Assembly: GCA_023953835.1 (NCBI GenBank)
Contig: JAMLJB010000001.1
Location: 2,949,501 to 3,013,500, forward strand
DNA length: 64,000 nt
From: Rhizobiaceae bacterium
Lineage (GTDB): Bacteria; Pseudomonadota; Alphaproteobacteria; Rhizobiales; Rhizobiaceae
Direction: 5' to 3'
How positions within the stretch are numbered: position 1 is the first letter of the stretch; the number at the start of each line of letters is the position of its first letter. This document shows positions 18,669 through 55,140 of the stretch, one piece after another. Made by a program: the position numbers and the translations under genes. The notes under the pieces are model-generated. The model saw only the letters and a list, made by a program, of their open reading frames with translations, made no database searches and had not been told where the DNA came from.

Positions 18669-18781
18669 CGGCGGCGACATTTCATTATAAATTGCTTTAT
18701 TAGTATTATATGCATAAAAACGGGAATGCGTCCCGCCGCCGGGATTCTACACCGAATTGACTTTTCCCCGGACAAGGCTTG

Positions 18782-19927
18782 ATGAAGTTCGTTTTTCTGA
18801 ACGGTACCAGCTATACGTTCGATCCGCGCACGCCTTTCAACCAGCCGCTTGGCGGTACGGAGTCGGCGGTCGCCTATCTGACCGCCGCACTTGTGCGCGC
18901 GGGCGCAGAGGTGACGTTGTTGAACAACAGCCCGGTCGAGCGCGAAGTGGATGGTGTGCGCATCGCGAACAACAATCCTATTGCGCACAAGTTTTTCACG
19001 GACTGTGATGTCTTCGTGGTGGTCGCCCGGTCGATCGGCCTCAACGTCCGCAGATTCCTCGGACCCGACACCCCCATCGTTCTATGGTCGCATCTGGACA
19101 GCGACCAGCCGAATGTCTTCGGCCTTGCGGAGGCAGCGGAACGCGATTCCTGGACCCGCTATGTCATGATCAGCAAATGGCAGGCCGAACGCTTCGTCAG
19201 GCAATATTCATTGCCTGAAGAGCGGATCGACATCATCGGCAACGGCGTGTCTCCGGCCTTTCTGGCCGAACCGCCGGCGCCCGCCTGGTTCGAAACCGGA
19301 GATTCGCCGACCCTTGCCTACACCAGCACGCCATACCGGGGACTGGACCTGCTGCTGCAATGCTTCCCGACAATCCGGGAAGCCGTGCCGGATGTCAGGC
19401 TGAGAATCCATTCATCGATGAAAATCTATGGGGTTCCCGCTCAAGGAGACGGCTTCGGATACCTGTACAAACTCGCGCAATCGCTTGATGGCGTGGACTA
19501 TGTGGGACCCGTATCGCAGCAGAAGCTCGCCGAATCCTTGCGCGACGTTGCCGCGCTCGCCTATCCGAGCACATTCAAGGAAACGTCGTGCATCGCCGTC
19601 ATGGAGGCCATGGCCAGCGGGGCGGAGGTTGTGACCACGCATCTGGGCGCGTTGCCGGAAACATTGAGCGGTTTCGGCAGGGTGCTCCCGTCGGGAAACT
19701 ACGAGCATAAATTTGGCACAAACCCGGCGCTCGCAAACAGCTTCATCGGCCTGGTGGTCAGAATGCTGCGCGAGGCCCGAAGCAATCCCGCATCTGTCGC
19801 CGAGGAGCGTCGGCGGCGCATCGGCTTTGCCCGGCAGAACTACAACTGGGATGCGCGCGCCCAGCAATGGCTGGCGCTGGCAAACCGGCTGAAATCGGGG
19901 ACAGAGGTCACGCCGAAGCTTCCATGA
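18782..19927 (+). CDS. Glycosyltransferase family 4-like protein
   Basis: A 381-residue glycosyltransferase of the GT-B fold, predicted to transfer a nucleotide-activated sugar in the cytoplasm. The N-terminal domain has GGTESAVAYLTAAL (residues about 22-35), typical of GT4 enzymes. The C-terminal domain carries YTSTPYRGLDLLLQCFP and the acceptor/donor motif PSTFKETSCIAVMEAMASG, with the EX7E-like glutamates. ATG 18782 is preferred over the TTG just before it. It is the first gene of the accessory block after lolD, separated by 113 AT-rich bases. The acceptor is unknown; nearby polysaccharide-active proteins suggest a surface glycan, but protein glycosylation is possible. Confidence 0.82.
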   Translation: MKFVFLNGTSYTFDPRTPFNQPLGGTESAVAYLTAALVRAGAEVTLLNNSPVEREVDGVRIANNNPIAHKFFTDCDVFVVVARSIGLNVRRFLGPDTPIVLWSHLDSDQPNVFGLAEAAERDSWTRYVMISKWQAERFVRQYSLPEERIDIIGNGVSPAFLAEPPAPAWFETGDSPTLAYTSTPYRGLDLLLQCFPTIREAVPDVRLRIHSSMKIYGVPAQGDGFGYLYKLAQSLDGVDYVGPVSQQKLAESLRDVAALAYPSTFKETSCIAVMEAMASGAEVVTTHLGALPETLSGFGRVLPSGNYEHKFGTNPALANSFIGLVVRMLREARSNPASVAEERRRRIGFARQNYNWDARAQQWLALANRLKSGTEVTPKLP

Positions 19928-20017
19928 ACCTGTGAATGACTACTATTGATTGTTTCCGCGAAACAATTACAACCATTTCATAAAATATAGCTCACCGCGG
20001 TGTTGTCATACTTTCGA

Positions 20018-20051
20018 TATAATTGACATATTTTATTATGCATACTAACAA
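20018..20051 (+). promoter_or_regulatory. AT-rich candidate promoter of the spike-like gene
   Basis: The 163-base gap before the gene at 20091 is much richer in A and T than its surroundings. It contains TATAAT at 20018-20023 overlapping TTGACA at 20023-20028, then TATTTTATTATGCATACTAA. No single pairing has ideal spacing, so the exact promoter is uncertain. The TTGACATATT string recurs upstream of the next gene at 21230. Confidence 0.3.
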
Positions 20052-20090
20052 TTAATCTAAGATCCGAGCTGGTCTTGCAGGTAACCGAAC

Positions 20091-21233
20091 ATGGATTCAG
20101 AATCTAGTGTTGCCACGTTCAACTTTGTTGATACGGACACTTACTTTTCTTTCGCTCTGGCCAACGTGAATGTGGGCCTGAACGCCGCCAAGATGGAGGC
20201 GTCCATCAATGCGGCGAATGTCGAATTCATGATTGCTGGAATTTCCTCTGAATTGAACTTCGTTGCGCAGACATTTGCCTACGCGATCGGCAAGGAATAT
20301 TCGACATCCCACAAGACCGAAAAAACGAGCTGGAGAGGGCTGGACCTGATCAGTTTGGCAGCGGCTGAACACGCCGATCCCGCGCAGCAACAATTGATGC
20401 TGGTATCAACTCTTGACGCTCAAGCTGCGAGCGCCACTTTCGAGTCCTTCAAGAACAAAGTCGAAAACGTCAAGGCGCACAGGGTCTCATACGAAGAGGG
20501 CACGACCCTCGCGATTTCGAAGGGCACAACGTATGAATTGACGACCGGCGTTTCCCATATCTGGGACTATGGAAAGACCTTTCGATATTCAGACAGCTTC
20601 AGCTACGATGCGTTGACGTCCGGCATGAAAATCATGTTCGGCCAACAATATGTCATTGCACAAATGAATGGCACGCGATTGGCGCAGGCTTCAACGGACG
20701 ACGCTGCCGGACATGCACTCGAGGACGACAGGAGGACCACATATGAAAGGCTCTTCGTGGAATCGGAGGTCAAGTTCGGCATTTCAGAAGATGGCATATT
20801 CCTCCAGGCTGGCGACTATCGACTGGCCGTCACCAAGACGGGAATTACGGCCAGCCTGAGCACCGGAGGGAACGGCGGCAATTCGATGGCTGAGAAAGCG
20901 AGCATCCAGCTTTCCGAGCATGGCGCATTGATTTCCGTACAGGGCAAAGAAGTCGAGGTGTCCGAACTGGGCGTGGTGGTCGATGGGGAACTCCAGGTTG
21001 CGGGAAACGTGTCGGCGAGCGGCAGAATCGCAAGCCCGAACGTGGTCGCGGGGGGAGTGTCTCTCTTGGCGCATGTCCATCCTGCGATCGGATCTCCGCC
21101 CACGCCGGGGGCACCAATACCACCCTTGGCAATATCGACAGTTTTCTCGAACGTAACGTCTTCACTAAGAAGTAAACATCTCTTATTACTTAATAAAGTT
21201 TTCAGCAAGAAAGTGACATCCAAATCGTTTTGA
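20091..21233 (+). CDS. Protein with phage-spike-like C-terminal HxH tip, otherwise unrecognised
   Basis: A 380-residue protein I cannot assign to a named family. Residues 1-130 are largely helical (two Ala-rich amphipathic helices at about 22-66 and 84-127). Residues 130-255 are beta-rich. Residues 265-326 show short alternating strands with Gly turns (ISVQGKEVEVSELG, GELQVAGNVSASG) like the beta-helix of contractile-tail spikes. The segment ending SLLAHVHPAIGSPPTPG places H328 and H330 in an AHVHP motif, resembling the metal-binding apex of gpV/gp138-type phage spikes. About 40 further residues follow, ending in a Lys/Ser-rich tail. No lysozyme, tail sheath or tube gene is nearby. The tip assignment is inference from pattern only. 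Confidence 0.6.
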   Translation: MDSESSVATFNFVDTDTYFSFALANVNVGLNAAKMEASINAANVEFMIAGISSELNFVAQTFAYAIGKEYSTSHKTEKTSWRGLDLISLAAAEHADPAQQQLMLVSTLDAQAASATFESFKNKVENVKAHRVSYEEGTTLAISKGTTYELTTGVSHIWDYGKTFRYSDSFSYDALTSGMKIMFGQQYVIAQMNGTRLAQASTDDAAGHALEDDRRTTYERLFVESEVKFGISEDGIFLQAGDYRLAVTKTGITASLSTGGNGGNSMAEKASIQLSEHGALISVQGKEVEVSELGVVVDGELQVAGNVSASGRIASPNVVAGGVSLLAHVHPAIGSPPTPGAPIPPLAISTVFSNVTSSLRSKHLLLLNKVFSKKVTSKSF

Positions 21234-21256
21234 CATATTATATACATAAATATACT
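21230..21256 (+). promoter_or_regulatory. Candidate promoter of the 397-residue unknown gene
   Basis: TTGACA (21230-21235) and TATACT (21251-21256) are separated by 15 bases in a strongly AT-rich stretch that overlaps the stop of the preceding gene. The spacing is short, so this is tentative. It would give a leader of about 20 bases before ATG 21285, which has no clear Shine-Dalgarno sequence. Confidence 0.35.
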
Positions 21257-21284
21257 TTAATAAGCCGAGTTTTGTTACAAATCT

Positions 21285-22478
21285 ATGTCCGGGCCTCTGA
21301 GCACATTTTTCAGCGAGATCGAGTTTCAGGTTTCGACGGGCCTGATCGTTCGAGCAATTGTCGCTGTGCGTTCCAGGGCCTCGATGGCGGAAGCGCTGAT
21401 CGCGCGATATGCGGAAAAGCACGGACTGGCAATTCTCCAACCCATCGAGGTGCAGGATGTGGTGCATCTCATGCGGGCGTCGCAAGTCACGCCTCTTCAT
21501 TCGCACCTCATAGGCAAGGTCGGTGCGGATGGGGCGGTCGCCTCGCTGGTATTGGGAAGCGCGAATGCGCGCGAATGCGCGCTGATTGCGTCGAAGTTCG
21601 ATCCGGCCCTGCCGGTGCTGGTCGTGTTCAACGTTCCCCTCAATCTCGGCCAATATCTTCAGCTGCGCTCGAACCGGATATCCATCGTGCCCATTGCGGG
21701 CTTTGTCGACGACACGGAAGCCAATCTGCCCACAACAGTCGGCGTGTTCTTTCCTGCCTGGACACAGGAGGCGCACGAACTGTTCGGGAAGCTGGACAGT
21801 CCCGTCCTCCTTCAGGATCCGCCGGAGACGATGACGGAGGCGACTGCCGCGCCTATTTTTTTGTTGATGGCGGAGGATCGGTGGTCATTGTCGCACCCAC
21901 TGGATTGCCATTGGTGGAGTTCCGCCCCGGTCATCGACGCCGAACCGCCGAGCGAGCAAGGCGTGCGCATGTTTCGCATGCTGCGTTCATCGAGCGAGCA
22001 GGGCGAGCTCGGCTATATCGGGCGCGCCCGTTTCGACTATGAACTGGTTCAATACAAGGATGCAGCCATCGAAGAGCCGAAGCGGCCCGCATCACGGTTG
22101 CTCTCGCTTGCCTGTGAAACTGCAATCGCGAATGCCTATTTCAATGGCTGTGCATTTGATTTCATGCCGGCCGCGATGAGGCGTCAGGCCGGGCTGCCGG
22201 CCCTCGGCTCGCTCGGTGGCGTTCGGGAGTCGTTGGACATCCTCCTGCAGCCTGTCGAGCAAGCGGTTTACAAATATCGCAAGATGAATGACGACAGACT
22301 GAACTATCAGATCATTCAGGAATTTGCTGCCGGCTTCGGGCTGGCGGTGGAACGAAATGTGCTACAGCAGGCCGTCGCTCGCTGGCAGGCGCTCAGCGCG
22401 TTCACCGGCGAGGGCCTGTCTTTCAAGCCTCCGGCGCGGCAGATCGCGAGCATGTTCTATGTGGAAAACTGCCGATAG
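21285..22478 (+). CDS. Unrecognised 397-residue protein of the accessory block
   Basis: A 397-residue soluble protein with no signal peptide, transmembrane helix or motif that I recognise. Residues 1-60 and 80-150 look like alternating strands and helices; residues about 290-380 are mainly helical (SLDILLQPVEQAVYKYRKM). A Trp-rich segment (RWSLSHPLDCHWWSSAP, about residues 200-216) stands out. It begins 51 bases after the spike-like gene on the same strand, which suggests a two-gene unit, and ends 25 bases before the 3' end of the convergent GH18 gene. Codon use matches a normal coding gene. No function is proposed. Confidence 0.72.
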   Translation: MSGPLSTFFSEIEFQVSTGLIVRAIVAVRSRASMAEALIARYAEKHGLAILQPIEVQDVVHLMRASQVTPLHSHLIGKVGADGAVASLVLGSANARECALIASKFDPALPVLVVFNVPLNLGQYLQLRSNRISIVPIAGFVDDTEANLPTTVGVFFPAWTQEAHELFGKLDSPVLLQDPPETMTEATAAPIFLLMAEDRWSLSHPLDCHWWSSAPVIDAEPPSEQGVRMFRMLRSSSEQGELGYIGRARFDYELVQYKDAAIEEPKRPASRLLSLACETAIANAYFNGCAFDFMPAAMRRQAGLPALGSLGGVRESLDILLQPVEQAVYKYRKMNDDRLNYQIIQEFAAGFGLAVERNVLQQAVARWQALSAFTGEGLSFKPPARQIASMFYVENCR

Positions 22479-22503
22479 GGCAGGGTTGCCGCCCGCTACC
22501 CCT

Positions 22504-25500
22504 TCAGGTCAGCACGACATTGGTGATTTCCTTGTCGAGCCACAGCGTTGCGGTGCCGTTGCTGTAGACATCATACGTCGTGCCGCCTTCTTCCTGTTCC
22601 GACCCTGTATCGGCAAATCCTATTGCCTGCACAGTGTCTCCGGCGTCGCCGTCCACCACGAGTGTGTTTGTCGAGGATGACATGCGCAGCAGGTCGTCCG
22701 CGGTAAAGGCCAGCCTGTTGTCGCCGCTGCCTGTGATGTCCAGCGCTTCGACGCTGGTGATCACATTGCTCGCGCTGGACAGGTCGATATCGATGTCACT
22801 GCCAGAAAGGATAATCTTATCAAACCCTTCGCCGCCGTCGATCAGCACATCGTGCATCTCGCCGACGTTGAACGTATCGTCACCCTCGAAACCCAGCAGG
22901 ATCTTGATCTTGTCGACAGCGCTCAGACTGTCGGCATCGGCGATGACATCGGCACCCGAAGTGCCGAGCGCGGCAGCTTCAGTCGTGATGGAAGTCGGAT
23001 CGTCGGAGCCGAAAACAACAGTGCCGCTCCCTACGGCATCATCTGACATCACCACGATCAGGTCGTCATAACCGTCGCGGTTAAGGTCGTTCGCGGCGAC
23101 AACGGACGGAGCCGCTTGACCATCCGCGCTGTCGTAGGGAATAAGGAAGCCCTGCGTTGCGGCCAGGCTGGACAGGTCGACCGCGCTGCCTCCGGTTGCG
23201 GAACCATAAATGACATAGGTTTGGTCGGAGCTGTATTCGCCGCCAGGCGCTCTCACGATGAAATCAGCTGTTCCGTCGCCGTTGACGTCTCCCGCCGCCG
23301 TGACCGCTAGGTCCGATTCCTCGCCGCCCGCGTCGTCCTGAATGATGAAGCCCTGTGCGTCGCCCAATACGACGGGGCTCTCTTGCTCGTTTCCGGTGTC
23401 GAGATCAACTGATGCAAGCATGAATGAGGAGAGCGGGGCAACCGTCGAATCCACGCTGATTTCGAACGCTGTAGATATCGGGCCATGCTGGCCGTTCTGG
23501 TCGACGACGCGGACCGTGTAGCTGTAGGCGTGGCCATCTTCGAGCCCGCTGTCGGCATAGGTCCAGTTGGTGCCCGAGACGCTTGCCGTGCCGATCACGG
23601 CGCCGTTGCGCAGCACCTGCAAGGTCTGGCCCGCGAGCAGCGTTGTCGACAAGGTGCCCGCGAGCGTTGGTGCATCATCGTCGGTCGTGCTGCCGATATA
23701 TCCGTCGATCACGCCGTCGCCGCCGATGATGACGTCAGGTTCGATCGAAGACTCCGCTATGATGTCGGCTACGCTCTTGCCCGTGAGGAAGCTTTCATAG
23801 GCCGCCTTTATCAGGCTGTCGGCAACCAGCGTATCGCCGGTTATGTCCCAGAACATCATGCCGCCCAGCCCCAGCGACTGTGCCCACTCCGCTTTCATTG
23901 CGACCGATGCCGGCGTTTCCAGCGTCGAGTAAATGCCGTCATCAGCATTGTACGCATAGGCGGCCTGGGCGTTGTCATCCCAATAGATCGTCCAGCCGCT
24001 GTCGGGGTCCTGCACCAGCGCGTAGAGTTCCTTGTAGTCGAATACGCCGTCTTCCCATCTGGTGTCGGCAAGGCCGGTGCTGGTGTCGTTCCAGCCGCCG
24101 TCGCCGCCGTTCGGCACGCCGGTCCACCCATAGTCATAGGTCGGTGCGCCGAGAATGATCTTGGAAGCGTCGACGCCCGCCGCGAGATACATCTGTATCG
24201 CGGTCGTCACGTCATTGCTGCCGCCGATCGTGTCATACATCGGCGCCTGATGCCCGGTCGTGGAACTCCATCTGCCGTTGAAATCATAAGCCATCACGTG
24301 GAAGTAATCGACGTAAGGCGAAAGGCCTTCGAGGTTCATGTCCGCGATGCGCTCGGAGGCCACCGGGGCGGCAATCGAAATGTCGTATTCGCGGCCGGTC
24401 TCGATCTCCAGGGCGTCGAGTGCGCCACGCAGATCTGAAAGCAGCAGCGCATAGTTCTGGCCGTCCGTGTCGCGGACCGCATTCGTGTCGAGTCCGCCGC
24501 CACCTGGAAATTCCCAATCGAAATCGACGCCGTCGAACATCGGATAGGTGCGCAGGAAATCCACGACCGAGCCGACAAAGGTTGCGCGCGTCTCGGCGCT
24601 TGCCGCCATGTCGGAGAAGTTTCCCGAGTTCGACCAGCCGCCGACCGCCATGGTTATGGAGAGCTCGGGGTTGGCGTCCTTCAACTTGGCGAGCTGGTTG
24701 AAATTGCCGGCAAGCCCTTGTCCCCAGACATCGGCGACGCCATCGATGCTCTCCTCCGCTGTGAAGGATTTCTCCAGCGCGGCATAGGGGTCGATAATCG
24801 CCATTTTGCCGTCCTCGTCGATCTTCGCGAACGCGTAAATCAACTGAGTCAGGCTTTCCACGGGCACATCATTGACCATGTAGTCGCGCCCGTAGATGCC
24901 CCATTCGGGGAAATAGGCCGCGACAACCGGATCTGGTGCGGCCTCGCCGGCAATCGAGGCACTGACGAGATTTCCTGTCTCCGCTCCCGCATCGTCGTGG
25001 ACATAGGAGATGCGCGCAGTGGTGGTCAGCGTCGTCGCATCGACGCCGATGTTTATGTCGAAGGGCGACGATGAGGCTCCTTCATTGCCCACCGCATCAA
25101 CGACGCGGACCGTGTATTGGTAGCTGTTGCCGCTTTCAAGGCCGCTGTCGGCGTAGGACCAGTTCGTACTGCCAACGCTTGCCGTGCCGATCACCTCACC
25201 GTCGCGCAGCACCTGCATCGTGTCGCCCAAGCCGAGCGCATCCGACAGGGTGCCCGAGAGAAGCGGGGTGGTGTCGTCGGTCGTCGCGCCATTGGCAAGC
25301 GTACCCGTTTCCGATCCCTGATCGTCCGTAGCTGCAACGATAGCTGCGGTCAGCGTTGGCGCGTCGATGTCCACCTCGATGGAAAAGCCGGTTGAGGTGG
25401 TTCCCGCATTGCCCACCGCATCGACGACGCGAACCGTATATTGGTAACTGTCGCCGCTTTCGAGGCCGCTGTCGGCATAGGACCAGTCCGTGGCGCCGAC

Positions 25501-26778
25501 GTTTGCGGTGCCGATCACCGCGCCGTCCCGCAACACCTGTACGGTTTCGCCCACGCCGAGTGCCTCCGACAAGGTGCCCGAGAGCAGGGGACTGGTGTCG
25601 TCCGTCGCGCCTGAGTCGGAGACGGGGCCTGTCTGCGATCCCTGATCGTCCGTGACCGCGCTGATGGACGCGGTTCGCGTCGGCGCGGTGGTGTCCACAC
25701 TTATGGAAAAGCCGTCCGAGACTGTTCCGGTATTGCCCGCCGCGTCGACAAGGCGCGCGCTGTATTCATAGGTGTTGCCGTCCTGGAGTCCGCTGTCGGC
25801 AAACGTCCATGCGATGCCGTCGACGCGCGCCGTGCCGATCACGTCGCCGTCGCGCAAAACCTGAACCGTCTCGCCCGCGCCAAGCTCCGCCGAGAGTGTG
25901 CCGAGCAGAAGTGGCGTGGTGTCGTCGGTCGCATCGCCGTCCGACAGCGCGCCTGTCAGCAACCCACGGTCGTCCGTGGCTTTGGTGATGGACGCCGTCT
26001 GCGTCGGCGCGCTCGTATCGATGCCGATCTCGAAGGTTGACGATTGCGCCCCGACATTGCCTGTCGAATCGACGATCCGTGCGCTGTATTCGTAGGTGTT
26101 GCCGTCTTGCAGCCCGCTGTCTTCGTAGATCCAGCCGGTAATGCTGACGCTTGCTGTTCCGATCACCTCGCCGTCGCGCAACACCTGCACGGACTCGCCT
26201 TCGGCGAGCGCCTGCCCGAGGCTGCCCGAGAGAAGCGGCGTTGTGTCGTCGGTGACGGCATGATTCGGGAGCAGGCTTTGCCGGGCCCCTTCATTGTCCA
26301 ATGCCGATTCGATCGTCAGCGACTCCGTCGGTGCCGGCGCGTCCTGCTCGACGGGGTCGGCAGGGTCGTTCGGGAAGGCCATCCCGTTCACGACACCGGC
26401 CGCTGCCGCCGATGTGCTCAGAATGCCAAGCAGTGAGGTGGCGGAGATGCTGCCGCCGATGCCCTCGACGGCGATCAGGCCGGGGTCGAGCACGCCCTGC
26501 GTGGTCGCAGCGAAGGCGTTCGACAAATCCACCAGCGTGTTGTTGCCGCCTTGCGCAAAGACCAGGTTGTTTTGCGAAACGCCGTTTTCGGCAAATCCCT
26601 GTATGGTGATGCTGTCGCCCGACTTCATATTGATAATCAGGTCGTTGCCCTGGCGGGTAAAATTGGCGACGTTTTCCGGGCCGCCCTGCACGACGAAATT
26701 GGTCGGCCCCTTCGGCGCAACCACGCTTCCCGAGGCGTCGATCGACGTGTGTCCGTCAAGAACTGATGGTGAAATCAA
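22504..26778 (-). CDS. Large secreted GH18 (chitinase-type) protein with Ig-like repeats and type I secretion features
   Basis: A 1424-residue modular protein. Residues about 25-75 resemble the BapA/LapA-type N-terminal prefix domain (GNDLIINMKSGDSITIQGF). Four Ig-like repeats of about 108 residues fill 153-590, each with DDTTPLLSGTL and QVLRDGxVIGTA. A glycoside hydrolase 18 domain spans about 617-1000: the catalytic motif DGVDFDWE is at 749-756 with Glu756 as acid/base, and AVGGWSNSG, MAYD (829-832) and Trp977 are also present. A fifth Ig-like repeat (1030-1112), two FG-GAP-like segments (DVNGDGTADF, DLNRDGYDDL) and a C-terminal region (about 1290-1424) like type I secreted adhesins follow. 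There is no Sec signal. The start is TTG 26778 with GGAG six bases upstream. No secretion ABC/MFP genes lie in the window. Likely substrate: beta-1,4-GlcNAc polymer. Confidence 0.85.
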   Translation of the reverse strand: MISPSVLDGHTSIDASGSVVAPKGPTNFVVQGGPENVANFTRQGNDLIINMKSGDSITIQGFAENGVSQNNLVFAQGGNNTLVDLSNAFAATTQGVLDPGLIAVEGIGGSISATSLLGILSTSAAAAGVVNGMAFPNDPADPVEQDAPAPTESLTIESALDNEGARQSLLPNHAVTDDTTPLLSGSLGQALAEGESVQVLRDGEVIGTASVSITGWIYEDSGLQDGNTYEYSARIVDSTGNVGAQSSTFEIGIDTSAPTQTASITKATDDRGLLTGALSDGDATDDTTPLLLGTLSAELGAGETVQVLRDGDVIGTARVDGIAWTFADSGLQDGNTYEYSARLVDAAGNTGTVSDGFSISVDTTAPTRTASISAVTDDQGSQTGPVSDSGATDDTSPLLSGTLSEALGVGETVQVLRDGAVIGTANVGATDWSYADSGLESGDSYQYTVRVVDAVGNAGTTSTGFSIEVDIDAPTLTAAIVAATDDQGSETGTLANGATTDDTTPLLSGTLSDALGLGDTMQVLRDGEVIGTASVGSTNWSYADSGLESGNSYQYTVRVVDAVGNEGASSSPFDINIGVDATTLTTTARISYVHDDAGAETGNLVSASIAGEAAPDPVVAAYFPEWGIYGRDYMVNDVPVESLTQLIYAFAKIDEDGKMAIIDPYAALEKSFTAEESIDGVADVWGQGLAGNFNQLAKLKDANPELSITMAVGGWSNSGNFSDMAASAETRATFVGSVVDFLRTYPMFDGVDFDWEFPGGGGLDTNAVRDTDGQNYALLLSDLRGALDALEIETGREYDISIAAPVASERIADMNLEGLSPYVDYFHVMAYDFNGRWSSTTGHQAPMYDTIGGSNDVTTAIQMYLAAGVDASKIILGAPTYDYGWTGVPNGGDGGWNDTSTGLADTRWEDGVFDYKELYALVQDPDSGWTIYWDDNAQAAYAYNADDGIYSTLETPASVAMKAEWAQSLGLGGMMFWDITGDTLVADSLIKAAYESFLTGKSVADIIAESSIEPDVIIGGDGVIDGYIGSTTDDDAPTLAGTLSTTLLAGQTLQVLRNGAVIGTASVSGTNWTYADSGLEDGHAYSYTVRVVDQNGQHGPISTAFEISVDSTVAPLSSFMLASVDLDTGNEQESPVVLGDAQGFIIQDDAGGEESDLAVTAAGDVNGDGTADFIVRAPGGEYSSDQTYVIYGSATGGSAVDLSSLAATQGFLIPYDSADGQAAPSVVAANDLNRDGYDDLIVVMSDDAVGSGTVVFGSDDPTSITTEAAALGTSGADVIADADSLSAVDKIKILLGFEGDDTFNVGEMHDVLIDGGEGFDKIILSGSDIDIDLSSASNVITSVEALDITGSGDNRLAFTADDLLRMSSSTNTLVVDGDAGDTVQAIGFADTGSEQEEGGTTYDVYSNGTATLWLDKEITNVVLT
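25009..26322 (-). repeat. Four tandem coding repeats (Ig-like domains)
   Basis: Four consecutive units of about 325 bases encode Ig-like domains of the GH18 protein. Units 3 and 4 are the closest pair (both contain DSGLESG and SYQYTVRVVDAVGN), while units 1 and 2 share DSGLQDGNTYEYSAR. A fifth, more diverged unit sits beyond the GH18 domain at about 23443-23694. The pattern suggests stepwise duplication. Confidence 0.85.
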
Positions 26779-27119
26779 AGTCGAACTCCGGAGAACCGAT
26801 CCGGCATGCGGCGCGTGCTACATTGATGAAGCGCGGCGCGGCCCGGAAGCCATCTCATGGATTGGCGCAAGTCAAAGAAAAATCAGTTCTGGCGGACGTG
26901 TTGGTCCGAGTGGCCAAACCAACGTCCGGCGCAAGCCTCAAATAATTCAAACAAAGTCGTCGCCCCTCAATTTCGAAATCAATACCAGCCCTATATTTGA
27001 ATGTATCTAATTTAGTGTCTTGTCAACCAATCTCGTGAGCCGGCCGCATGCGGGCAGGGGTTCCTCAATCGCGCCGTCGCCCTTGATCGTGGTTTGGAAA
27101 ATCAATCTCAGACGGCGTA
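26779..27119. other. 341-bp non-coding leader region of the GH18 gene
   Basis: No gene is seen. Reading leftward, TTGACA (plus coordinates 27021-27026) with TACATT (27000-27005, spacer 15) is a weak candidate promoter for the GH18 gene and would give a leader of about 220 bases. The region 26930-27020 is AT-rich compared with the flanking genes. Confidence 0.35.
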
Positions 27120-27149
27120 TTGACTCTGAACAAAAAAAGAACATAATAT
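27120..27149 (+). promoter_or_regulatory. Strong sigma70-type promoter of a mini-gene
   Basis: TTGACT (27120-27125) and TAATAT (27144-27149) are separated by 18 bases. Both hexamers are one mismatch from consensus, which makes this the best promoter match I noticed in the window. Transcription would start near 27156, leaving a leader of about 20 bases ahead of the ATG at 27176. Confidence 0.7.
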
Positions 27150-27175
27150 GAACAATACACAAACAGGAGGACGCA

Positions 27176-27262
27176 ATGAACGAGCTTCTTCAAGATGTTG
27201 TATCGATGGTCAGCATGAGCGCGTTTCTCATTTCCACGGCGTTGTGGATTGGCGCGCTGTAG
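27176..27262 (+). CDS. 28-residue hydrophobic mini-protein
   Basis: A short reading frame encodes MNELLQDVVSMVSMSAFLIS followed by TALWIGAL, a single amphipathic-to-hydrophobic helix long enough to cross or lie on a membrane. Support comes from signals rather than homology: a perfect AGGAGG Shine-Dalgarno sits five bases before the ATG, and a strong promoter lies 27 bases further upstream. Its stop is 13 bases from the 3' end of the convergent lipB. The longer frame starting at ATG 27148 overlaps the -10 box and cannot be transcribed from this promoter. I do not recognise the family. Confidence 0.6.
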   Translation: MNELLQDVVSMVSMSAFLISTALWIGAL

Positions 27263-27274
27263 GCGCGCTGGAAA

Positions 27275-28173: not shown

Positions 28174-29655
28174 TCATTTCAGAAGCTCTTCGAATGTCTT
28201 TTCCTGGTTGAGCAGCTTGCCGCGATTTATGCCGTCCAGCACTTTTTGCGGGGATTCGAACTCAAGACCGGGGCCTTGATCGAATTGAGAAGTGCGCTCA
28301 AGCCATTCCCTGGCGATTTTTTCGAGGTCCCCGGTCAGGCGGGGATCATCGAATGCAGGAAACTTCGCGAGATAGAGCAGGGCGACAATGTGCTGCATAT
28401 GATAGTAGTTCTTGCCGTTTTCCTTGCTGAAATTGGTCGGGTATCCGCAGATCAGCTCGCCATTGTCCAAGGCAAGCTGCGCCACTTGAAGACCGCCTTT
28501 CGCCGAGGACTGGATCGTGTGATACGGCCCGTCCGGCTCCGGCGTCGCCCGCCGGGGATTGTAGCCTCCCTCGCGAACCTTTACCGAGAACGCGCGGTCA
28601 GACACGATAAAGGTGTCGTAGAGCGAGGAGCAGTTGACCGAAGCAAGCGTCGTGCTGCTGCCCGCGTTCGATTTCAGGATGCGGTCGTCGAAGCCTCCAT
28701 AGGTGCGCGACGTGTCTTCCACGGGCGGGATGGCATAGTCGGGGAGCGCGGCGTCCCTGGCCTTGTACACCACGCGGAATGCGGGCGCGCCGTCAGTTCC
28801 GGTCAGTTCGATCCGCACGGGCGAGGTGTCGGAATAGCGGCTGATGTTGCGCTTGTCGTCATACCACGCGCCGTGATTGCGAACGAAGAATTCAAGGTTG
28901 CGACGAATGAGTTCGGACGACGCCGTGTCATGCGTGGTCACGGCATAGTCCGACAGTTTCAGCAGCGCGTGCAGCCAGCCGTTGAGAATCACTTCGGGAT
29001 TGGAATGAAAGAGGGGAAATTCCAGCAGGGCCTCGCCGTTCAGGTTTGTGCCCCCATACCGGTGATCGAGAAGCATTGCGGTCTTCACGCGCTCGGCGAG
29101 GTCGGACAGCCGGGGATCGAATTGGGCCGCTTTCGCATAGCCGGCGAGCGCTTCGGACTGCGAAATCGCGCTGAACATCACTTCGGGTCCGATCATTCGG
29201 GCAAGCGGAAAGTTGTCCGGATAGAAGAACGCGAGGCCGCCATTCGGCACTTCGACGCCTATCCGCTGCGAAAGTGCGGGCAGCCTTTCGCGAAAAGCCG
29301 GGTCGTCGGCATTGTTGAACACGAAGCGTCCCCACACCATCGGGTGAAAGACATATTTGTTGCGGTCCTTCAATTGCCAGTACGAGGCATAAGGGAGTCC
29401 GTCGACGACGATCGTTTTCTGGTTGTTTCCATAGAGCGAAAAATCGAAACCCGGATCGCCGGAATCATAGACGATCGACGCGGTTTCCATCTGGCCGGTG
29501 GAAGGCTGGAACGGTTTGGGGGTCACGCAGTTCGCGGACCCGGTGACGGCTCGGCACGCCGCTTCAAGGGAAACGGTGGACGCAACCGCCGGTGTACAGA
29601 AGCCGGCAGCCAGCAAGATCGTCGCGGCCATCCCTCCAATCAACCATTCCTGCAT
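28174..29655 (-). CDS. Exported D-glucuronyl C5-epimerase-like protein
   Basis: A 493-residue protein with a Sec signal peptide (MQEWLIGGMAATILLAAGF, cleavage near AVAS at 23-26), so probably periplasmic. The segment NGEALLEFPLFHSN followed by VILNGWLHALLKLSDYA (about residues 207-239) resembles the C-terminal domain of heparosan-N-sulfate-glucuronate C5-epimerases, an alpha/alpha barrel that binds uronate polymers. A GGAGG ribosome-binding site lies six bases before the ATG. The tRNA-Leu gene is upstream on the same strand. A role in modifying an exported uronic-acid polysaccharide is inference; it could instead be a lyase or binding protein with the same fold. Confidence 0.68.
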   Translation of the reverse strand: MQEWLIGGMAATILLAAGFCTPAVASTVSLEAACRAVTGSANCVTPKPFQPSTGQMETASIVYDSGDPGFDFSLYGNNQKTIVVDGLPYASYWQLKDRNKYVFHPMVWGRFVFNNADDPAFRERLPALSQRIGVEVPNGGLAFFYPDNFPLARMIGPEVMFSAISQSEALAGYAKAAQFDPRLSDLAERVKTAMLLDHRYGGTNLNGEALLEFPLFHSNPEVILNGWLHALLKLSDYAVTTHDTASSELIRRNLEFFVRNHGAWYDDKRNISRYSDTSPVRIELTGTDGAPAFRVVYKARDAALPDYAIPPVEDTSRTYGGFDDRILKSNAGSSTTLASVNCSSLYDTFIVSDRAFSVKVREGGYNPRRATPEPDGPYHTIQSSAKGGLQVAQLALDNGELICGYPTNFSKENGKNYYHMQHIVALLYLAKFPAFDDPRLTGDLEKIAREWLERTSQFDQGPGLEFESPQKVLDGINRGKLLNQEKTFEELLK

Positions 29656-53880: not shown

Positions 53881-54029
53881 ACCGCCCCCACTCCGTCGCG
53901 CTTCGCGCGCCACCTCTCCCCCACTTCGCAGGGGAGAGGAAGGGTGTGGCGGGGAAGACAGGCTCCCTTCCTCACCCCCACTTTGTGGGGGAGAGGTGGT
54001 TTGCGAAGCAAACCGGAGTGGGGGTGGTG
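53881..54029. repeat. Palindromic intergenic element, family 2
   Basis: The left half (53881-53939, with CACCTCTCCCCCACTTCGCA) is mirrored by the right half (53971-54029, with TTTGTGGGGGAGAGGTGG and GGAGTGGGGGTGGT). It would fold into a long two-arm RNA structure. It differs in sequence from the three elements of family 1 but has the same design. Its right arm is read through by the small gene at 53972. Confidence 0.75.
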
Positions 54030-54193
54030 TCCAAATACGTCACCCTTCGACCACGGAACCACGGCGCATTGACCACGATCCATGTCAGGCCGAGCAGGGT
54101 GAAAGATGGGGCGATGATCCACAGCGCCTTGATCGCATCCGACGAGGAGCGAAACGCATCGAAGAAATCCTGCCAGAAATGATAGCTGTCCAT
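53972..54193 (-). CDS. Small membrane protein, copy A of a tandem duplicate
   Basis: A 73-residue protein beginning MDSYHFWQDFFDAFRSSSDA and containing one transmembrane helix (LWIIAPSFTLLGLTWIVV, about residues 24-41) followed by a basic RGRR stretch. GGAGG sits five bases before the ATG. The last 17 or so residues (TTPTPVCFANHLSPTKWG) are encoded by the adjacent palindromic element, so the original end has probably been replaced. It is about 85-90 percent identical over residues 1-52 to copy B at 54656 by eye. Family and function unknown. Confidence 0.7.
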   Translation of the reverse strand: MDSYHFWQDFFDAFRSSSDAIKALWIIAPSFTLLGLTWIVVNAPWFRGRRVTYLDTTPTPVCFANHLSPTKWG

Positions 54194-54486
54194 TGCGACC
54201 TCCGTGCCATGCAATTTGGTCACCGAGGGGCCCCAAAAAGCCCCACTCGCCCCTCTGGTGACCGGGGAGGTGATAAACCGTGCAACGACGGCTGCCCCGA
54301 CCTTTAAGCCGAAGCTCTGGACATACGTCGGGGCCTCCCCGGCCCTGAGGCTCGTGGAGATGCCGTTGACGGTCGGCATCGACCGCGTCGCAAGGGATTA
54401 TCACATCCCAAGGCCCGGCCAAACGACCGGACCCGAGGCGACCATATTCCATCATATGCTAAAATAGAAGCGGGATTTTGGGTTGG
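54040..54486. repeat. Direct repeat unit A (about 450 bp)
   Basis: This unit is nearly identical to 54694-55140 at an offset of 654 bases. It contains the small membrane-protein gene and about 290 bases of its upstream leader. The leader includes a large stem (GGTCACCGAGGGG with CCCCTCTGGTGACC, about 54220-54265) just before the ribosome-binding site on the minus strand. Differences include a two-base indel in the stem loop (CCCCAAAAAGCCCC here). Confidence 0.88.
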
Positions 54487-54655: not shown

Positions 54656-54847
54656 CTATGTCGGCAAGGCTATCACCGCCGCATCAACATACATCACCCG
54701 CCTTCCACGCAGCCACGGCGCATTGACCACGATCCATGTCAGGCCGAGCAAGGTGCATGATGGGACGATGATCCACAGCGCCTTGATCGCATCCGACGAG
54801 GACCGAAACGCATCGAAGAAATCTTTCCAGAAATGATAGCTGTCCAT
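54656..54847 (-). CDS. Small membrane protein, copy B of a tandem duplicate
   Basis: A 63-residue protein beginning MDSYHFWKDFFDAFRSSSDA with one transmembrane helix (LWIIVPSCTLLGLTWIVV) and a basic RGRR stretch, ending VMYVDAAVIALPT. GGAGG lies five bases before the ATG. It ends just before a palindromic element, so this copy may keep a more original C-terminus than copy A. The second repeat unit supplies the same leader hairpin. Family unknown to me. Confidence 0.72.
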   Translation of the reverse strand: MDSYHFWKDFFDAFRSSSDAIKALWIIVPSCTLLGLTWIVVNAPWLRGRRVMYVDAAVIALPT

Positions 54848-55140
54848 TGCGACCTCCGTGCCATGCAATTTGGTCACCGAGGGGCCCCAAAGCCCCACTC
54901 GCCCCTCTGGTGACCGGGGAGGTCATAAACCGCACAACGACGGCTGCCCCGACCTTTAAGCCGAAGCTCTGGACATGCGTCGAGGCCTCCCCGGCCCTGA
55001 GGCTCGTGGAGATGCCGTTGACGATCGACATCGACCGCGTTGGATGGGACTATGACACCCCAAGGCCCGGCCAGGCGACCGGACCCGAGGCGACCATATT
55101 CCATCATATGCTAAAATAGAAGCGGGATTTTTTGGGTTGG
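54694..55140. repeat. Direct repeat unit B (about 450 bp)
   Basis: Second copy of the unit at 54040-54486, with scattered substitutions and a shorter stem loop (CCCCAAAGCCCC). The leader part (54848-55140) contains no separate gene that is conserved in frame between the copies, because the two-base indel shifts any longer upstream reading. It directly abuts the 3' end of the GlxA-type regulator gene. Confidence 0.88.

What the first reader, a model, noticed from the sequence alone, without database searches (positions are those of the whole stretch)
18669..26778. Accessory block with a spike-like protein, an unknown protein and a large secreted GH18 protein
After the conserved lolD gene the gene order changes to a GT4 glycosyltransferase, a protein with a phage-spike-like tip, an unrecognised 397-residue protein and a convergent 1424-residue GH18 protein. 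Intergenic spacers are AT-rich, unlike the flanking operons, which suggests acquisition. A tail-spike-like tip without other tail genes, next to a polysaccharide hydrolase and a glycosyltransferase, could be a cell-surface or secreted assembly not yet described. The link between the genes is inference; only adjacency is seen. This is my best candidate for a new system.
Basis: partly seen in the sequence, partly recalled or inferred. Interest (0 to 1): 0.7.

Follow-up and report, generated by a model that had tools for sequence, protein, structure and literature searches.

The report
Orphan type VI secretion tip pair
Two of the four genes are an orphan copy of a pair that also sits inside a complete bacterial "spear-gun" (type VI secretion) gene cluster elsewhere in the same genome; one encodes a free-standing spike with a phage-type metal-binding tip, and the neighbouring glycosyltransferase and chitinase-like genes are unrelated passengers.

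Summary
The four genes exist as described, but they are not one system. The GT4 gene follows lolD in both sampled congeners, so it belongs to the genus core. The 1424-residue GH18 protein is an ordinary BapA-prefix/Ig-repeat (type I secretion-style) enzyme. The real unit is the middle pair: spike-like protein (sp1) plus 397-residue protein. The same genome holds a paralogous pair in the same order (26% and 48% identity) between hcp and vgrG of a complete T6SS (T6SS-1), about 2.3 Mb away. The C-termini of both spikes match phage P2 gpV / Mu gp45 apex domains with an invariant HxH (iron-binding in phages). The VgrG of T6SS-1 lacks the beta-helix needle, and no PF05488 PAAR gene was found in the genome. 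Best explanation: an orphan, exchangeable tip module for T6SS-1, in which a separate phage-type spike supplies needle and metal tip and the 397-residue protein is its loader or adaptor. The pair was found in no other genome, phage, plasmid or viral contig searched. Split VgrGs are known (Acinetobacter, Francisella); an HxH-tipped separate spike with this partner was not found in the papers searched. New variant of a known kind; the mechanism is inferred, not shown.

The parts
20091..21233 (+). sp1: free-standing spike protein, 380 aa; N-terminal half unknown, C-terminal phage gpV/gp45-like apex
   Evidence: paralogue in T6SS-1; apex homology; GC z -4.0
20973..21125 (+). apex domain of sp1 (about residues 295-345)
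   Evidence: 38% identity over 52 aa to gpV of phage Smp131; alignment with phage spikes
21072..21080 (+). HVH motif (residues 328-330), equivalent to the iron-binding HxH of phage spikes
   Evidence: both His invariant in nine aligned sequences; role from PMC6116203 and PMC10715212
21285..22478 (+). 397-aa partner protein, new family; 48% identical to the 408-aa protein of T6SS-1
   Evidence: no family match
19928..20090 (+). AT-rich spacer upstream of sp1 with a sigma-70-like match (TTGACA at 20023); consensus only
18782..19927 (+). GT4 glycosyltransferase; genus core gene, NOT part of the module
   Evidence: follows lolD in G001 and G002
22504..26778 (-). BapA-prefix / Big_13 repeats / GH18 / FG-GAP protein; NOT part of the module

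Best explanation
sp1 and the 397-aa protein are an orphan tip module for a type VI secretion system. Shown: a paralogous pair in the same order sits between hcp and vgrG of a complete T6SS in the same genome; the C-termini of both spikes are homologous to the metal-binding apex of phage baseplate spikes; the VgrG of that T6SS lacks the beta-helix needle; no canonical PAAR gene was found in the genome. Inferred: three copies of the spike form the needle and HxH metal tip that VgrG and PAAR provide elsewhere, docking on the needle-less VgrG hub; the well-conserved 397/408-aa protein folds, loads or joins the spike (adaptor or chaperone); the window pair is an alternative tip that can replace the cluster-encoded one and may carry a different cargo or target specificity in its divergent N-terminal half.
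For: Paralogous pair, same order, at G000:C1:668122-670327: sp2 26% identity E 1.6e-10, 408 aa 48% identity E 6e-122. Locus: hcp - sp2 - 408 - vgrG - 82 aa - tssB-C-E-F-G - fha - tssJ-K-L - clpV - sigma-54 activator - tssM - tssA, all with intact frames. sp2 C-terminus against 50,697 phage records: the annotated matches listed are baseplate assembly V / gp45 / spike proteins, the rest hypothetical or unannotated; its two best solved-structure hits are a Vgr needle (3wit) and a phage puncturing protein (4ru3), both weak. A profile of both spikes plus phage spikes reaches P2 gpV, Mu gp45 and the R2 pyocin spike in the PDB. VgrG of T6SS-1 matches solved VgrG1 only to residue 550 of 593, and five other VgrGs carry the needle that it lacks. 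No PF05488 in the genome. The partner is more conserved (48%) than the spike (24-26%), as for an adaptor rather than an immunity protein (inference). Metal tips are needed: T6SS assembly in EAEC fails without PAAR (PMC10715212).
Against: No structure: both AlphaFold models are unusable (pLDDT 41.7 and 29.5). Only two members of each family are known, both in one genome. The orphan pair has no hcp, vgrG or tss gene beside it. The genome also has a full-needle orphan VgrG (L039) and, in T6SS-2, a Tox-PAAR-like protein, which could tip T6SS-1 instead. The period-8 signal for a beta-helix is weak in the spikes (z about 2). sp1 has 53 residues from its HVH motif to the end where sp2 has 18, which might spoil a pointed tip or be decay.
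Confidence: 0.55

Rival explanations
1. The spike is a T6SS effector: a toxin or cargo domain in the divergent N-terminal half fused to a phage-type tip, and the 397/408-aa protein is its cognate chaperone or immunity protein; the apparatus itself uses other VgrG/PAAR proteins.
For: Genes next to hcp and vgrG are often effector genes (established knowledge); N-terminal halves diverge strongly; orphan VgrG/effector modules are known (PMC10671463); another VgrG with needle and a Tox-PAAR-like protein exist in the genome.
Against: No toxin domain found; the partner is much better conserved than the spike, unlike most immunity proteins; it does not explain why the adjacent VgrG lacks its needle.
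Confidence: 0.25
2. Captured phage parts: sp1/397 and sp2/408 are remnants of a contractile-tailed phage (Mu-like or jumbo) that inserted twice and have no T6SS role.
For: Apex domain is phage-like; Mu-like phage genes lie in this genus, including in the same GT4-lipB interval of G002; the spike gene is AT-rich.
Against: No other tail genes at either place; neither protein matches any phage over its length; both pairs are intact, and one lies inside the T6SS cluster between hcp and vgrG.
Confidence: 0.12
3. The four genes of the block form one secreted surface assembly.
For: Adjacency only.
Against: GT4 is core in the genus next to lolD; GH18 is convergent and of type-I-secretion style; the pair recurs without GT4 or GH18 in T6SS-1.
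Confidence: 0.03

Closest known systems
Phage baseplate spike apex (P2 gpV, Mu gp45, phi92 spike, R2 pyocin PA0616)
   Same: C-terminal 50-100 residues with the pattern ..DVxxxxxSLxxHxHxxxxGxxTxxP; both His invariant
   Different: No recognisable OB domain; N-terminal half unrelated; lies in or is paired with a T6SS, not a phage tail; has a dedicated partner family
VgrG + PAAR spike of canonical T6SS
   Same: Encoded next to hcp/vgrG; weak match of the sp2 needle region to a Vgr needle structure (3wit)
   Different: Needle and tip would be a separate protein with an HxH site instead of a VgrG C-terminus plus PAAR
Split VgrG (Acinetobacter, PMC6838775) and Francisella VgrG/PdpA (PMC5924787)
   Same: Hub and needle on separate proteins
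   Different: Those systems have PAAR or a PAAR-like tip (IglG proposed in Francisella); here a phage-type apex and a conserved 400-residue partner, duplicated as an orphan pair
Orphan vgrG / PAAR auxiliary modules (e.g. PMC10671463)
   Same: Tip component plus partner encoded away from the main cluster
   Different: No VgrG, PAAR, Tap (DUF4123), DUF2169 or recognised effector in the window module

Membership tests
Phage-type central spike (gpV/gp45 apex) | C-terminal HxH within the conserved apex motif | tested here: met
   both His invariant in nine sequences; E 6.7e-9 (sp1), 7e-15 (sp2)
Phage-type central spike (gpV/gp45 apex) | N-terminal OB-fold domain | tested here: not met
   no PF04717 or other OB match in sp1/sp2
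Phage-type central spike (gpV/gp45 apex) | Trimeric beta-helix with bound iron | not testable with these tools
   AlphaFold model unusable
T6SS (T6SS-1 locus) | Core tss genes A, B, C, E, F, G, H, J, K, L, M with hcp and vgrG | tested here: met
T6SS (T6SS-1 locus) | VgrG with needle plus PAAR tip | tested here: not met
   VgrG-1 without beta-helix; no PF05488 in genome; a Tox-PAAR-like protein exists in T6SS-2
PAAR proteins | PAAR_motif / Tox-PAAR-like domain in sp1 | tested here: not met
Known T6SS adaptors (DUF4123, DUF2169) | Family match of the 397/408-aa protein | tested here: not met
   hhalign probability 0.1 (shallow profile)
BapA-like type I secreted protein (GH18 gene) | BapA prefix domain and repeated Ig domains | tested here: met
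   PF22783 E 5e-10, NF033677 E 2e-12, Big_13 with five stretches

The most novel reading that the evidence does not exclude
A T6SS whose VgrG is only a hub and whose needle and tip come from exchangeable, separately encoded phage-type HxH (iron-tipped) spikes, each with a dedicated ~400-residue partner of a new family, kept both in the cluster and as an orphan cassette.
Probability: 0.4. Interest if true: 0.7.

Novelty: new variant of a known kind. Interest (0 to 1): 0.55.

Why it matters
PAAR was required for T6SS assembly in EAEC (PMC10715212). A T6SS that uses the phage solution (an HxH metal tip on a separate spike) would show that tip chemistry and needle can be swapped between phage tails and T6SS, and would make the question 'what does the tip actually do' testable by exchanging two natural tips in one host. 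It also names a new protein family as a candidate T6SS adaptor.

Tried and rejected
Relatives of the 397-aa family: about 800 other genomes of the order and phylum, two genome contigs pattern scans, phages, plasmids and viral contigs: none. The single weak hit (G574) is a short chance match in a reading frame that overlaps other genes. AlphaFold models were too poor for a fold search, so none was run. Shared sigma-54 promoter: T6SS-1 has a sigma-54 activator, but no convincing -24/-12 site lies before sp1, and the matrix is too loose (60 hits in the window). The stretch upstream of tssB in 20 distant clusters with 64-74% identical TssC: no similar pair. DUF4123 / DUF2169 / TssA relation of the partner: none seen. 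One search used an out-of-frame stretch by mistake and is discarded; it was repeated correctly. Alignment A3 had the same error and was replaced by A4. Defence-system library: no match. Flanking repeats or integration marks: none clear; the long direct repeats are the Ig repeats of the GH18 gene.

Full report
What is there. Pfam confirms a GT4 glycosyltransferase and a GH18 enzyme. The GH18 protein starts with a BapA prefix domain, has Big_13 Ig repeats on both sides of the enzyme and FG-GAP repeats near the end, the build of a type-I-secreted adhesin or enzyme; the sequence DGVDFDWE (catalytic pattern DxxDxDxE, own knowledge) is intact. The 380-aa protein and the 397-aa protein match no curated family above threshold.

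The block is not one block. In both sampled congeners a GT4 gene of 56-58% identity follows lolD directly, so GT4 is part of the genus backbone. The variable interval runs from GT4 to lipB: in G001 it holds a 728-aa BapA/Ig protein, in G002 Mu-like phage genes, here sp1, the 397-aa gene and GH18 (the Mu-like genes of G002 were read from their sequence, not tested by a family search). Among the genes only sp1 stands out in composition (GC z -4.0).

The pair has a home. Searching the own genome gave a second copy of both genes, in the same order, at C1:668122-670327: 26% identity for the spike, 48% for the partner. That copy sits inside a complete T6SS (T6SS-1), between hcp and vgrG; TssA, B, C, E, F, G, H (ClpV), J, K, L, M, FHA and a sigma-54 activator are all there with intact frames. 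TssC of T6SS-1 is 64-74% identical to clusters in other classes of the phylum, but in the sampled order at most 62% (one genome, G041) and otherwise 45% or less, so T6SS-1 itself looks horizontally acquired; neither congener has a TssC match.

What the spikes are. The last 99 residues of the T6SS-1 spike (sp2) match phage baseplate spikes almost exclusively: gpV, gp45, 'baseplate spike' (E-values 2e-3 to 9, so the argument is the uniform annotation, not single scores). sp1 gives Erwinia and Vibrio large-genome phage baseplate or structural proteins. In an alignment of nine sequences both histidines of HxH are invariant. A profile of the phage C-termini separates sp1 and sp2 from 117 other entries; the phage sequences had been found with sp2 or sp1, so this is partly circular, but sp1 also matches phage proteins that only sp2 had found (Smp131 gpV, 38% over 52 aa). 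Against the PDB, the same alignment reaches P2 gpV, Mu gp45 and the R2 pyocin spike, and sp2 alone has a Vgr needle and a phage puncturing protein as its two best, weak, hits. In those phage spikes HxH binds iron at the tip (PMC6116203, PMC10715212).

What T6SS-1 lacks. Its VgrG (593 aa) aligns with solved VgrG1 to residue 550 and ends in a short hydrophobic tail; five other VgrGs continue into the beta-helix needle. PF05488 PAAR was found nowhere in the genome; T6SS-2 on C2 has a Tox-PAAR-like protein.

Reading. The simplest reading is a split tip: VgrG is the hub, the spike is needle plus metal tip, and the 397/408-aa protein handles the spike. The window pair would be an orphan alternative tip, as orphan VgrG and PAAR modules are elsewhere. 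Shown: gene pairing, duplication, T6SS context, apex homology, needle-less VgrG. Inferred: trimer, metal, docking on VgrG, role of the partner, exchange between the two tips. The effector reading stays open (0.25), because the N-terminal halves are unlike each other and unknown.

Novelty. Split hub/needle is known in Acinetobacter and Francisella. Seven searches of the open paper library turned up no HxH-type spike in a T6SS; subscription papers were not searched. The partner family was found in none of about 800 other genomes sampled, so it is very young, very divergent or poorly sampled.

Noticed in passing
L156:6116-7669 and L156:10884-15195, L157:1706-7660 (genome G041): A second genome of the order with a T6SS-1-type TssC (62%) has a VgrG that ends right after the OB domain (517 aa), plus two sets of three beta-rich 270-330-aa proteins (one weakly like DUF2345), DUF2169-pentapeptide fusions and a PAAR-like protein: perhaps another split tip.
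   Followed up: partly
L039:9456-16208 (G000:C1:3171455-3178207): Orphan full-length VgrG (59% identical to VgrG-1) with DUF4123 adaptor and a metallopeptidase-like protein, beside Mu-like phage genes (transposase A and B, gpT).
   Followed up: partly
L040 (G000:C2:317000-336999): Second T6SS (T6SS-2) with VgrG, DUF2169 adaptor and a Tox-PAAR-like protein with an unknown C-terminal domain.
   Followed up: partly
L150:8986-11172; L151:5280-14117; window 19928-27274: The GT4-lipB interval is variable in the genus: BapA/Ig protein, Mu-like phage genes, or spike pair + GH18.
   Followed up: partly
window 21126-21233: sp1 has 53 residues from its HVH motif to the end, mostly AT-rich code, where sp2 has 18; either a real extension or read-through into former spacer.
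   Followed up: no
L006:881-1129: 82-aa protein between vgrG and tssB of T6SS-1 without family match.
   Followed up: no
window 54194 and 54848: The same 16-base sequence TGGCACGGAGGTCGCA (sigma-54-like) occurs twice on the - strand 654 bases apart, each within a small predicted ORF (53972-54379, 54656-54898).
   Followed up: no
window 28174-29655: 493-aa protein with a sub-threshold match to D-glucuronyl C5-epimerase (PF06662, E 0.0016).
   Followed up: no
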